In this document: in pieces, positions 1 to 3,657 of the stretch
Layout: each line of letters starts with the position of its first letter
Numbering within the stretch: position 1 is the stretch's first letter
From: Chloroflexia bacterium SDU3-3
GTDB lineage: Bacteria; Chloroflexota; Chloroflexia; Chloroflexales; Roseiflexaceae
DNA: 64,000 bases
NCBI GenBank assembly: GCA_009268125.1
Contig: WBOU01000002.1
Coordinates: forward strand, 496,001-560,000
Reading direction: 5' to 3'
Made by a program: the position numbers and the translations under genes
The notes under the pieces: generated by a model
The model's database searches: none
Seen by the model: only the letters and a program-made list of their open reading frames with translations
Told to the model about the DNA's origin: nothing

Positions 1-920
1 CAGTTGACCTTGAAGGCGATGTAGCCGCCCACGCCGTAGGTGACGGTGTAGGCGTGCACCAGGTAGGCCAGCTGCTGGCGCTCGCGCAGCTCAAGGAACA
101 GGCGCGACTTCAGGCCGCCGCCCAGCGCGTCGGCCAGCAGATCCATGGCGTGGCGGTCGTGCGAGAGGAACGAGGCCCCAGGGTAGGCGAACAGCAGGTC
201 GATGCGCTGGCTGCTGGTGGGCAGGGCGATCACACGCGGCTCGGTCTGGATGGGCAGGTCGAGCGTGCGGCTCGGCTGGGTCTCCCACGCGCCAAAGTAG
301 CGCTCGACTATGTCGGAGAAGCTGGCGAAGTCGATCGGGCCAAGCGCCACCAGGGTCATGCGGTCGGCCACGTAGTTCTGCTGCAGCCGCTGCTCGATGG
401 CGTCGCGGTCGAAGCGGCTGATGTTCTCCTTGCGCCCGATCACAAACAGCCCCACCGAGTGATCGCCCCACATGGCGTTGTCGAGCAGCTCTTTTAGCAC
501 ATTGCTGGATGAGAAGGCCATGGAGTGCTCGTGGAGGATGATCGAGCGCTCGTGCTCGATCACATCTACCGAGGTCTGCTTGCTGCTGGCGATGATGCTC
601 AGCAGGTGCAGCGCGCGCTCAAGCAGATCGGGGCGGCAGTTCACCACGAATCGGGTGTACTCTTTGCTGGTGTAGGCCTCGTAGCTCACGCCCGCGTCCA
701 TCAGGTCGTTCAGCAGCGAGCGCACGTGCGCGGGCATGTGGTTGGGGTTGAAGATCACATGCTCGATGTAGTGGGCGATCCCGTTGCTTTCGTAGTCCTC
801 GTGCTGCGAGCCGTGGCCGATGTAGAGGCCCAGGTTGATCGTGCGCTGGTGGTGGTGGGGCTTCAGGCGCACCTGCAGCCCATTGCTCAGCACGGTCTGG
901 ATGATTGTCTCTTTTGCCAT
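1..920 (-). CDS. M16 family zinc metallopeptidase, N-terminal part (cut by left edge)
   Basis: The reading frame opens at an ATG whose complement lies at 918-920 and stays open to the window edge, giving 306 visible residues; the 3' end is missing. The inverted zinc motif HYIEH is at residues 50-54, and a third ligand glutamate fits Glu131 in ERSIILHEH, the usual M16 spacing. Residues near 285 (LELRERQQLAYLVHAYTV) match the start of the second M16 lobe. M16 proteases cut small peptides, and several RiPP pathways use one to remove leaders. It is the last visible gene of a minus-strand cluster, 131 bp after a candidate precursor peptide gene, which suggests (inference) a role in maturing that peptide. 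A housekeeping M16 peptidase is the alternative. Confidence 0.9.
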   Translation of the reverse strand, partial: MAKETIIQTVLSNGLQVRLKPHHHQRTINLGLYIGHGSQHEDYESNGIAHYIEHVIFNPNHMPAHVRSLLNDLMDAGVSYEAYTSKEYTRFVVNCRPDLLERALHLLSIIASSKQTSVDVIEHERSIILHEHSMAFSSSNVLKELLDNAMWGDHSVGLFVIGRKENISRFDRDAIEQRLQQNYVADRMTLVALGPIDFASFSDIVERYFGAWETQPSRTLDLPIQTEPRVIALPTSSQRIDLLFAYPGASFLSHDRHAMDLLADALGGGLKSRLFLELRERQQLAYLVHAYTVTYGVGGYIAFKVN

Positions 921-1028
921 CGCCGATCCTATGCATGTGTCGCGGGGTTCCGGGCGGCGCTTGGGCGTGCGGCGATGCGCGTCAGCGCCCTGGCGGGGCG
1001 GCCTCGGGCGCATCGCCAACACGGCAAC

Positions 1029-1051
1029 GGCCCCAGCCAGCGGCTAGGGCC
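1029..1051 (-). other. Stem-loop directly after precursor peptide gene A
   Basis: GGCCC and AGCC at 1029-1038 pair with GGCT and GGGCC at 1042-1051 around an AGC loop, with one C/A mismatch. The hairpin abuts the stop codon of the 67-residue peptide gene. There is no T-run on the minus strand, so it is not a standard intrinsic terminator. It may protect the 3' end of the precursor message or separate it from the protease gene (inference). Confidence 0.6.
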
Positions 1052-1255
1052 TTACTCCACCTGAAGCGATACCGAGATCCCGCCCTGCTCTGGCGGGTCG
1101 TCGGATGGGGTGGGGGCGTTGGCGATCTGCTGCGCCAGCTCGTCCTGCTGGATGATCAGCTCGCCCTGCTCGTTCACCGTGAACTGGTCGGGCAGCAGGC
1201 TGGCAGCTTGCGCGTTCGCCGCCCCACGCTTGCGGCCCTTTTTCTGCGTGGCCAT
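1052..1255 (-). CDS. Candidate RiPP precursor peptide A (67 aa)
   Basis: A 67-residue peptide with a basic N-terminus (KKGRKR), a middle segment DQFTVNEQGELIIQQDEL, a NAP boundary at about residues 46-48, and a tail ending GGISVSLQVE. The middle segment and the NAP...P..G.I.V layout are shared with the peptide at 1338-1526. There is no cysteine. An AAAGGAAAGGA ribosome site precedes the ATG. It lies between a radical SAM C-methyltransferase gene and an M16 protease gene on the same strand. The precursor role is inferred from size, paralogy, context and layout (conserved leader-like part, short variable tail rich in beta-branched residues); I do not recognise a named family. Confidence 0.7.
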   Translation of the reverse strand: MATQKKGRKRGAANAQAASLLPDQFTVNEQGELIIQQDELAQQIANAPTPSDDPPEQGGISVSLQVE

Positions 1256-1302
1256 GGGTTCAGTCCTTTCCTTTGGCGGGTGTGCCTCACGGCGCTGTGA
1301 GC

Positions 1303-1330
1303 GGGGCCAGGGCTGTGCGGCCCTGGCCCC
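1303..1330 (-). other. Stem-loop directly after precursor peptide gene B
   Basis: A perfect 11-bp inverted repeat (GGGGCCAGGGC / GCCCTGGCCCC) with a six-base loop sits 7 bp after the stop codon of the peptide at 1338-1526 and upstream of the next peptide's ribosome site. It has no T-tract. Hairpins like this commonly stabilise or limit read-through of abundant precursor-peptide messages; that role here is inferred. Confidence 0.65.
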
Positions 1331-1337
1331 AAGAGCA

Positions 1338-1526
1338 CTAGGAAACCGAGACGCTCACGCCGACCGTGATGGTGCCCGCCTCGGGGGACTGGGCTACCTC
1401 TGGCGCGTTCTTGATGGCCTGGACGATCTCATCGTTCTTGATCACCAGCTCGCCCTTCTCGTTGAGGGTGAACTGGTCGGCGCTCAGCTGAAGTTTCTGG
1501 TCTTCGTGAAAGGTCTCGTCTGCCAT
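1338..1526 (-). CDS. Candidate RiPP precursor peptide B (62 aa)
   Basis: A 62-residue acidic peptide. I place the start at the ATG ending at 1526 (MADETFHED) because AAGGAG lies 6 bases upstream; the frame extends further back without a better site. Residues 17-43 (DQFTLNEKGELVIKNDE through NAP) parallel peptide A. The tail after NAP runs PEV..SPEAGTITVGVSVSVS, an alternating series of valine/threonine/isoleucine with serine/glycine. No Cys is present, so thioether chemistries are ruled out. It is the first gene after the radical SAM enzyme (85-bp gap) and is the likelier substrate for C-methylation of unactivated carbons (inference). Confidence 0.72.
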   Translation of the reverse strand: MADETFHEDQKLQLSADQFTLNEKGELVIKNDEIVQAIKNAPEVAQSPEAGTITVGVSVSVS

Positions 1527-1611
1527 TGGTGTGCTCCTTATGCTCTCGTTTGAAACCAGCCGCAACACTATGTCAGGCTAGCGCGTCCGCTAGTGAACGC
1601 CGTTGGGAATG

Positions 1612-3657
1612 CTAGGCCTCTACCATCTCGGGGCTGGGCGCTGGTGCGCCGAGCCGGATGGTGGTGGCCCCGCTGGATGCGGTGCCGATCTGGGTGATCA
1701 GCGCCTGGAGATTTTCAAGTACGGCTTTGCTGGGCGTGTAGCTGCCCAGTGGCACCGCTAGGCCCAGGTACAGCCCACCGCCGCCGCGCAGCATCACGTG
1801 CTGGTCGCACAGCGGCTGCAGCAGCTCGTCGATCTGGCCGGGCGCGGCTGGCTCGCCGCTATGCTCAAGGTAGATCTGCTCCAGCGCGCGGGTGGTGCTG
1901 GCCTGGTCGCAGGCTAGGTAGAGCGCCCGCTGCACACCGGTGAGCGTGATCAGGCGGTGCGGCAGGTTGGCGCGCAGATCCCAGATCAGCAGGTAGCTAC
2001 CCTTATCGACAAAGAACAGGCCGCTCTCGTCGTGGTGCTTCTTCCAGGCCGTGATCTCGCGGGCCACCGGCGCGGTGTAGCTGGCCACATCCTGTGGCTG
2101 GTGGTAGCCGAAGGTGAAGTAGTAGGCCAGGTTGGCCACTGCCTCGGGCGGCACGCGGTATACATAGCTGTAGGCCGGGTAGGGCTGCACATTGGCGAAT
2201 CCGGCCTCGGCGGATTGGTCGAAGTTAGGGCTGAAGCGGTCGAGCCGGATGGTGGCCGAGGCCATCGGCGGGTCGAAGTGGGTGAGGTAGGGCAGCAGCC
2301 GGGCGACCTCGGCGTAGTCCTCGGGCGACTCGCCAGGGAAGCCCCACAGCACATTCCAGTACGAGCGCACCCCCAGCTCCTTGCACCACTTCAGCAGCTG
2401 GATGTTCTGCACGGCCTTCACGCCCTTGCGCATCAGCTTCAGCACCGAGTCGCTCAGGCTCTCGATGCCGGGCTGGATGCCGGTGATCCCGGCCTGGCGC
2501 ATCATCTGCACCTGCTCTTTGCGCAGGTTGGCCTTGACCTCGTAGAACAGGTCGAGGTTCATCTCTTTGGCGATCAGGCTGGGGATGAAGTCTTTGAAGT
2601 ACTTCATGTCCAGGATGTTATCCACCACCGAGATCGGGCTGTCGGGGTGGCCGCTGGCCAAGTGCACCAGCTCGGCCATCGCGCGGTCCGCCGTCTTGCT
2701 GCGGTAGGTCATGGTCGAGCCGTTCAGGCCGCAGAAGGTGCAGTGGTTCTTCTCGCCCCACCAGCAGCCGCGCGAGGTCTCGTAGAGGATGCGGATGGGG
2801 AAGCGCGTGTCGATGTTGGCATCGGTCTTCTGGGCGAAGAAGTCGTCGTAATCGGGGTAGGGCAGCGCATCCATGTCGCGCACCGAGGGCGCGTTGCTGG
2901 CCCGCCCGGTCATGATCGCCAGGTCGGCGCTGGCGCGGGTATTCACGCCCTGCAGGTCGGCCAGCGAGCGGCGGGCCAGCACGCGCTCGACCAGCTGCGG
3001 GAAGATGATGTCGCCCTCGCCCGAGACGGTGGCGTCCATGAACGGGAACTGCCGCACCACCTCGGCCCCCATGATGCCCTCGCAGTTGGCCCCGCCCATC
3101 ACAGTGAAGATCTCAGGCGCGCGCTGCTTCAGCCGCCGCGCCAGTGCCAGCGAGGCCACTTGTTGCTGGAAGATGCTGGTGAAGCCCACCATCTTGGGCC
3201 GGTAGCTTAGCACGGTGTCCACGCAGGCATCCAGAAACTCGGCGGCCTGGGCGCGCACCGCCAGCACCTGGGCGATGTACTCCTCGGATGCGAGCCGTAT
3301 GGCCTCGCCCTGGCTGGTCTCGCGCCGCACCACGTTGTCGAGGTAGCCCTCGACGTCGTGCTCGATGTCGGGGAACAGCGCGCCGGAGAAGATCCACTCG
3401 CCGACCAGATCGTGGGTGAGCGGCCTGCCGTTTGAGATCTCGGTGTAGATCTCCGGCCCGATATGCTCGGCGAAGGCCAGAGTCATATACAGCACCTTGC
3501 ACGAGACCCCCAGCGGCGCGAGCGACGCTTTGAGCAGCCCCAGGCCGATCGATGGCTGGTTCAGCGGCCCAAATGGCATGGAGATCAGCAGCACATCGGT
3601 CTGCTCGGATCCCTGCGCAGCAAGGCCAGCAAGTGTGGTTCTCGCATCTGGCGGCAT
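1612..3657 (-). CDS. B12-binding radical SAM peptide C-methyltransferase (RiPP maturation radical SAM protein 1 type)
   Basis: 681 residues. Residues about 20-230 form a cobalamin-binding-like domain (SIGLGLLKASLAPLG; VGFTSIFQQQVASLALAR; VMGGANCEG). The [4Fe-4S] ligands are Cys298, Cys306 and Cys309 in CWWGEKNHCTFCGLNG, the C-x7-C-x2-C spacing and wording typical of the RiPP-maturation radical SAM C-methyltransferases (TIGR03975). Residues about 560-660 (LTGVQRALYLACDQASTTRA ... IDELLQPLCDQHVML) look like a PqqD/RRE-type winged helix that could bind the leader (inference). GAGGTGATT precedes the start. It heads the minus-strand cluster with the two short peptides and the M16 protease. Expected reaction: radical methylation of the precursor tail using SAM and methylcobalamin. 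Confidence 0.88.
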   Translation of the reverse strand: MPPDARTTLAGLAAQGSEQTDVLLISMPFGPLNQPSIGLGLLKASLAPLGVSCKVLYMTLAFAEHIGPEIYTEISNGRPLTHDLVGEWIFSGALFPDIEHDVEGYLDNVVRRETSQGEAIRLASEEYIAQVLAVRAQAAEFLDACVDTVLSYRPKMVGFTSIFQQQVASLALARRLKQRAPEIFTVMGGANCEGIMGAEVVRQFPFMDATVSGEGDIIFPQLVERVLARRSLADLQGVNTRASADLAIMTGRASNAPSVRDMDALPYPDYDDFFAQKTDANIDTRFPIRILYETSRGCWWGEKNHCTFCGLNGSTMTYRSKTADRAMAELVHLASGHPDSPISVVDNILDMKYFKDFIPSLIAKEMNLDLFYEVKANLRKEQVQMMRQAGITGIQPGIESLSDSVLKLMRKGVKAVQNIQLLKWCKELGVRSYWNVLWGFPGESPEDYAEVARLLPYLTHFDPPMASATIRLDRFSPNFDQSAEAGFANVQPYPAYSYVYRVPPEAVANLAYYFTFGYHQPQDVASYTAPVAREITAWKKHHDESGLFFVDKGSYLLIWDLRANLPHRLITLTGVQRALYLACDQASTTRALEQIYLEHSGEPAAPGQIDELLQPLCDQHVMLRGGGGLYLGLAVPLGSYTPSKAVLENLQALITQIGTASSGATTIRLGAPAPSPEMVEA

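What the first reader, a model, noticed from the sequence alone, without database searches (positions are those of the whole stretch)
1..3657. Candidate new RiPP locus: B12 radical SAM C-methyltransferase, two Cys-free precursor-like peptides, M16 protease
Seen: four same-strand genes with 82-131 bp gaps. The radical SAM protein has the C-x7-C-x2-C motif (Cys298/306/309) and an N-terminal cobalamin-type domain. Two short peptides share DQFT-NE-GEL-I--DE...NAP and have different tails (GGISVSLQVE; GTITVGVSVSVS). Known: the TIGR03975-type enzymes methylate unreactive carbons in RiPPs, and M16 proteases can remove leaders. Inferred: the alternating Val/Ile/Thr tails are the C-methylated cores, giving strand-like peptides. 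I do not recognise this precursor family, and no lanthipeptide, YcaO, Nif11 or ABC exporter gene is visible. More of the cluster may lie left of the window.
Basis: partly seen in the sequence, partly recalled or inferred. Interest (0 to 1): 0.85.

Follow-up and report, generated by a model that had tools for sequence, protein, structure and literature searches.

The report
New C-methylated peptide (RiPP) gene cluster
A bacterium of the phylum Chloroflexota carries a small conserved gene set that appears to make short valine-rich peptides, methylate them with a vitamin-B12 enzyme, cut them free and export them; the enzyme type is known, but the peptide family matches nothing in the family libraries searched.

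Summary
In detail: four minus-strand genes at the stated positions, with the radical SAM protein at 669 bits against TIGR03975 (cut-off 282). Extending left completes the operon: rSAM, pepA, pepB, M16 protease, winged-helix protein, MFS transporter, a third precursor (pepC), second MFS.

The order rSAM, 2-3 peptides, M16, winged-helix, MFS recurs in Ktedonobacteria and in a second genome of the window's own order, found with a peptide profile not trained on it. Peptide relatives also sit beside TIGR03975 genes in Mycobacterium, Rhizobiales, Rhizobium, another alphaproteobacterium and Methylococcaceae. Held-out members score 21-56 bits; the best decoy scores 15. In 1,375 genome scans (some repeated) no convincing peptide relative lay away from a TIGR03975 gene.

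The enzyme has the Cx7Cx2C motif of PoyC, which methylates Val/Ile beta-carbons, and the last ten residues of the peptides are 39% Val+Ile (background 12%). Best reading: a RiPP whose Val/Ile tails are C-methylated, released by M16 and exported by MFS. RiPP nature is strongly supported; methylation sites, cleavage and biological role are inferred. The precursor family matches no NCBIfam or Pfam model and I found no report of it: a new variant of a known kind.

The parts
1612..3657 (-). B12-dependent radical SAM protein, TIGR03975 (rSAM_ocin_1), 681 aa; N-terminal cobalamin-type domain, radical SAM domain with Cx7Cx2C, C-terminal winged-helix (RRE-like) domain about residues 547-632
   Evidence: 669 bits vs cut-off 282; PF04055; invariant Cys 298/306/309; model pLDDT 92.5; Foldseek OxsB, TokK, TsrM, CysS
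1338..1526 (-). precursor peptide pepA, 62 aa, tail GTITVGVSVSVS
   Evidence: RBS AAGGAG; profile members beside TIGR03975 in ten genomes; held-out score 56.1 bits vs best decoy 10.5
1052..1255 (-). precursor peptide pepB, 67 aa, tail GGISVSLQVE
   Evidence: 53% identical to pepA over 47 aa; held-out score 41.4 bits
1..920 (-). M16 metalloprotease (HYIEH motif), 5' part; the full gene is 417 aa, G000:C2:495667-496920. Left of the window follow: winged-helix protein 495094-495645, MFS 493839-495071, third precursor pepC 493582-493749, second MFS 492277-493578 (all minus strand)
   Evidence: PF00675 and PF05193 over cut-off; MFS_1 over cut-off; ORFs; pepC
1555..1606 (-). 52-nt element upstream of pepA with the palindrome CTAGCG-GACG-CGCTAG; second copy (96%) upstream of pepC; possible promoter/operator
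   Evidence: the repeat finder D10; only two strong copies in the 6.76-Mb genome
1302..1331 (-). 12-bp hairpin starting 6 nt after the pepA stop
   Evidence: 0 of 300 shuffles as good; similar hairpins after pepB, pepC and two precursors of G1073
1029..1051 (-). 10-bp hairpin directly after the pepB stop
   Evidence: 2.3% of shuffles as good

Best explanation
This is a RiPP gene cluster. Three Cys-free precursors share a leader (around L-x3-F-x-[LVI]-N-E-x-G-[ED]-[LV]-x-[IV]) and end in short Val/Ile/Thr-rich cores. The PoyC-type B12 radical SAM enzyme binds the leader, probably through its C-terminal winged-helix domain, and methylates beta-carbons of Val/Ile in the core (for example Val to tert-leucine), +14 Da per event. 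The M16 protease cuts in the Pro/acidic linker between leader and core, an MFS transporter exports the product, and the winged-helix protein regulates the operon. Shown here: gene content, conserved gene order, precursor family, enzyme family, motif and predicted fold. Inferred: leader binding, methylation and its sites, cleavage, export, regulation.
For: TIGR03975 at 669 bits. Cx7Cx2C as in PoyC and the bottromycin methylases (PMC5682303; PMC11285071). Predicted fold nearest to B12 radical SAM enzymes. Peptide family found beside this enzyme in ten genomes and, in 1,375 genome scans, never convincingly elsewhere. Same operon order in Ktedonobacteria and in the held-out genome G1073. Leave-one-out scores 20.6-56 bits vs 14.9 for the best of 15,294 decoys. 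Tails 39% Val+Ile vs 11.9% background. M16 enzymes remove RiPP leaders elsewhere (PMC10885120).
Against: No chemistry was observed. The closest rSAM relatives of the window enzyme (L060, L061) lack this precursor family, so enzyme and precursor have not simply co-evolved. The mycobacterial and alphaproteobacterial relatives have no M16 or obvious exporter nearby, so these parts are not universal. The RRE assignment rests on secondary-structure order only; Pfam shows no PqqD hit.
Confidence: 0.7

Rival explanations
1. A RiPP cluster, but the radical SAM enzyme performs another reaction on the tail (for example C-C bond formation or epimerisation), or methylates residues other than Val/Ile.
For: Val residues of a RiPP are turned into cyclopropylglycine by another radical SAM enzyme (TvgB, PMC9062424); B12 radical SAM enzymes also do non-methylation chemistry (OxsB is among the nearest folds).
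Against: TvgB was found in a different radical SAM subfamily (IPR023867, enzymes binding up to three Fe-S clusters). The characterised Cx7Cx2C RiPP enzymes are beta-carbon methylases. NCBIfam names the whole subfamily C-methyltransferase.
Confidence: 0.2
2. The product is not a secreted natural product but a peptide-derived cofactor or internal factor, as in PQQ biosynthesis (radical SAM enzyme plus M16-family protease plus short peptide).
For: The M16 protein has weak similarity to PqqF (43 bits, cut-off 320) and PQQ also uses a radical SAM enzyme (general knowledge).
Against: Two to three precursors with differing tails per cluster do not fit one cofactor; MFS transporters are part of the operon in all Chloroflexota forms; no Glu-Tyr pair or other cofactor motif is conserved in the tails.
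Confidence: 0.07
3. The short peptides are not substrates of the enzyme but unrelated small proteins that happen to lie in the operon.
For: They match no NCBIfam or Pfam family, so nothing in the libraries names them as precursors.
Against: They lie beside the same enzyme family in ten genomes from several phyla, are tandemly duplicated, and keep the N-terminal part while the hydrophobic tail varies. In the Rhizobiales locus L105 the peptide start overlaps the rSAM stop and a T-run terminator follows.
Confidence: 0.03

Closest known systems
Polytheonamide-type (proteusin) pathway with PoyB/PoyC
   Same: B12 radical SAM C-methyltransferase with Cx7Cx2C; PoyC methylates Val and Ile (PMC11285071; PMC5682303)
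   Different: Proteusin precursors have long nitrile-hydratase-like leaders and carry many other modifications. Here the leader is short and matches no NHLP model; no epimerase or dehydratase is in the operon; M16 and MFS are.
Bottromycin pathway (BmbB/F/J or BotRMT1-3)
   Same: Cx7Cx2C B12 radical SAM enzymes methylating Val, Phe and Pro beta-carbons (PMC5682303; PMC11285071)
   Different: One methylase instead of three, and an N-terminal leader instead of a C-terminal follower; no YcaO gene seen in the operon.
Other TIGR03975 clusters (Cys-rich TIRACTI-type, Nif11/NHLP-like, Lys-rich precursors)
   Same: Same enzyme family beside short precursor genes
   Different: Unrelated leaders and cores; not detected by the profile for this precursor family.
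Paenithopeptin/bacinapeptin M16 proteases (PttP1/PttP2)
   Same: M16 protease as RiPP leader peptidase (PMC10885120)
   Different: Class III lanthipeptides with a heteromeric M16 pair; here there is one M16 gene in the operon, no lanthipeptide synthetase and no Cys.

Membership tests
TIGR03975 RiPP maturation radical SAM C-methyltransferase | score over the curated NCBIfam cut-off across the whole model | tested here: met
   669 bits, positions 1-606 of 606, cut-off 281.85
TIGR03975 RiPP maturation radical SAM C-methyltransferase | Cx7Cx2C cluster motif and B12-type N-terminal domain | tested here: met
   C298/C306/C309 invariant; B12-binding Pfam below cut-off (25.3 vs 32.1) but the predicted fold matches B12 radical SAM enzymes
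TIGR03975 RiPP maturation radical SAM C-methyltransferase | C-methylation of a peptide | not testable with these tools
   needs co-expression and mass spectrometry
RiPP gene cluster | precursor genes with conserved leader and variable core beside the modifying enzyme in several lineages | tested here: met
RRE-containing RiPP enzyme | PqqD-like winged-helix leader-binding domain | tested here: inconclusive
   strand-strand-strand-helix-helix-helix order at residues 547-618 of the model; no PqqD Pfam hit; the domain alone could not be searched by fold
Proteusin (NHLP) or Nif11 precursor | leader matching the NHLP or Nif11 models | tested here: not met
   no NCBIfam or Pfam match to pepA or pepB up to E 1, nor such a match to eight further members up to E 10
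Lanthipeptide, sactipeptide or ranthipeptide | Cys in the core and the matching synthetase or SPASM enzyme | tested here: not met
   pepA, pepB and pepC lack Cys; none of the operon's genes is such an enzyme
M16 metalloprotease | HxxEH zinc motif and both M16 domains | tested here: met
   HYIEH in the sequence; PF00675 66.8 bits and PF05193 109.6 bits, both over cut-off

The most novel reading that the evidence does not exclude
A new RiPP class: very short, strand-forming peptides whose Val/Ile runs are multiply beta-C-methylated (dense tert-leucine), made as sets of variants, released by a dedicated M16 protease and used as signals or antimicrobials, with the precursor family spread over several phyla.
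Probability: 0.3. Interest if true: 0.75.

Novelty: new variant of a known kind. Interest (0 to 1): 0.58.

Why it matters
Methylating unactivated carbons of Val/Ile is difficult chemistry, and the known peptide examples (polytheonamide, bottromycin) come from elaborate pathways. A compact cluster with one methylase, short Cys-free substrates, its own protease and its own exporter would be a tractable model of how these enzymes recognise leaders and choose residues. The precursor profile also finds such clusters that current NCBIfam and Pfam models do not name.

Tried and rejected
Known precursor families: no convincing NCBIfam or Pfam match for any member tested; the sub-threshold hits (OsmC-family, Amidase_2, MCM4_WHD) look like chance. 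TVG/cyclopropylglycine pathway: different radical SAM subfamily, TVGG-repeat substrate. Plasmid search with the Rhizobiales peptide: no match. Surveys of 248 genomes of the genus of the Mycobacterium locus, 397 of the order of the Rhizobiales locus and 201 of the family of the Methylococcaceae locus found no further member, only one marginal hit in a 306-aa frame. A relaxed motif scan around relatives without the precursor found no missed members. Marginal profile hits in G129 (503-aa frame) and G641 (306-aa frame) were taken as chance. The model of the winged-helix protein is of low confidence (pLDDT 46.8), and its relation to the Ktedonobacterial protein at that position is weak (hhalign probability 17%). 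hmmsearch 'best decoy' d1636 was a real family member left among the decoys; corrected.

Full report
WHAT IS THERE. The window is G000:C2:496001-560000 of a 6.76-Mb genome. Its phylum is Chloroflexota: genome G346, listed as same phylum, has the contig and position of Ktedonobacter robiniae locus L117. The four genes lie as stated. The radical SAM protein covers all 606 positions of TIGR03975 at 669 bits, cut-off 282. C298, C306 and C309 are invariant among 71 relatives. Taking the stretch left of the window (L024, L025) completes the operon: M16 protease of 417 aa with an HYIEH motif and both M16 domains over Pfam cut-off, a 183-aa winged-helix protein, an MFS of 410 aa, a third precursor pepC of 55 aa, and a second MFS of 433 aa that is 69% identical to the first. 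pepC was found because the peptide profile hit between the two MFS genes.

CONSERVATION. Of 400 Chloroflexota genomes, 10 carry a TIGR03975 protein over cut-off. Three besides the window genome (G220, G346, G358) have rSAM, two or three peptides, M16, a winged-helix protein of 185-186 aa and an MFS in that order; two of these loci are named Ktedonobacterales and Ktedonobacter robiniae. The peptide profile, run over the 400 genomes, hits only the window genome and these three, plus one marginal hit inside a 503-aa frame. Searching the window's own order then found G1073, a genome not used in the profile, with three tandem peptides at E 3e-10 to 2e-8. Its contig carries rSAM (58% identical to the window's), three peptides, M16 (62%), a 184-aa winged-helix protein and MFS (51%). 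The M16 proteins of the window and Ktedonobacteria are 35% identical and the radical SAM proteins 38%. The winged-helix proteins of the two lineages hold the same place but are barely alignable.

PRECURSOR FAMILY. Inspecting the best 80 TIGR03975 loci from 84,980 species genomes gave further members in Mycobacterium sp. ACS1612 (L084), a Rhizobiales MAG (L105), a Rhizobium MAG (L095), another alphaproteobacterial MAG (L071) and a Methylococcaceae MAG (L087). Each of those five genomes has one copy, the one beside the rSAM gene. No M16 of this type was found near them; L084, L105 and L071 have about 10 kb on each side, whereas L087 and L095 are short contigs that cannot exclude it. Tails include GVSVGVVVSF, TIGVVVSRSF, VKVGIVIEF and TITVGVSVSVS. 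Over 15 peptides, 58 of the last 150 residues are Val or Ile against 11.9% background (its p-value of 4e-17 treats related peptides as independent and is too small). With each genome or group left out of the profile in turn, its peptides score 20.6-56.1 bits while the best of about 15,290 decoy frames scores 14.9. Members tested match no NCBIfam or Pfam family. Six surveys with the profile, 1,375 genome scans with some genomes repeated, found no convincing relative away from a TIGR03975 gene.

HOW IT PROBABLY WORKS. The polytheonamide and bottromycin beta-carbon methylases share the unusual Cx7Cx2C motif (PMC5682303), and PoyC methylates Ile3 and Val 5, 10 and 21 of polytheonamide (PMC11285071). 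The window enzyme has this motif, a confident model (pLDDT 92.5) whose nearest solved folds are OxsB, TokK, TsrM and CysS, and neighbours with Val/Ile tails. Its C-terminal domain shows the strand-strand-strand-helix-helix-helix order of a RiPP recognition element, and C-terminal RRE fusions are reported for proteusins (PMC7470986); this is suggestive only. M16 proteases remove leaders of some class III lanthipeptides (PMC10885120). Methylation, cleavage, export and regulation were not tested and are inference.

DNA AND RNA ELEMENTS. pepA and pepC each follow a copy of a 52-nt element, 96% identical, with no other strong copy in the genome. A 10-13-bp hairpin begins 0-12 nt after the stop of five of the six precursors of the window genome and G1073; the Ktedonobacterial precursors do not show this consistently. 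These may set precursor dosage or carry a regulator site; both are guesses.

EVOLUTION. The rSAM genes with this precursor lie in one part of a 71-sequence tree but need five changes of state, and many deep forks are weakly supported. The window enzyme is closer to L060 and L061, where no such precursor was found, than to the Ktedonobacterial enzymes. The enzyme family works beside many unrelated leader types, so enzyme and precursor have probably been reshuffled.

NOVELTY. The enzyme family and its presumed chemistry are known; the precursor family and the rSAM-precursor-M16-winged-helix-MFS arrangement appear unreported. The literature search covered only open-licence PMC papers, so a report in a subscription journal could have been missed. 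The collection scan returned the best 80 of at least 590 relatives, so the family is probably larger than shown.

Noticed in passing
L170:643-1566 and L060:6453-7304: Subtilisin-like (S8-type) protease genes, 64% identical to each other, lie just upstream of the TIGR03975 gene in two Chloroflexota genomes; a possible alternative leader peptidase.
   Followed up: no
L104:9571-9963, L109:3357-3749, L113:9461-9865, L133:7288-7728, L091:9631-10005: TIGR03975 genes of Paracoccus, Pyrinomonadaceae, other Acidobacteria and Solirubrobacter are preceded by a different precursor type: leader TLEMRVAELEDKL and Cys/Ile repeats such as TIRACTI, ending in GGGGFGGLGG.
   Followed up: no
L079:12083-12196 and L074:12068-12220: Acidobacterial TIGR03975 genes are followed at 16-22 bp by small Lys/Ala-rich ORFs with strong RBS (for example tail KVGCIFPG); candidate unusual precursors.
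   Followed up: no
L024:15277-18071 (G000:C2:492277-495071): Two MFS genes, 69% identical, flank the third precursor pepC, which suggests a tandem duplication of transporter with precursor cassette.
   Followed up: partly
G000:C8:123127-123149: A 23-nt partial match (91%, E 0.03) to the 52-nt precursor element elsewhere in the genome; may be chance.
   Followed up: no
L072:11994-12137: A frame overlapping the 3' end of an acidobacterial TIGR03975 gene reads IPERFSLNDQGDLVIR, like the leader of this family but without a tail; it was the best decoy in every held-out test.
   Followed up: no
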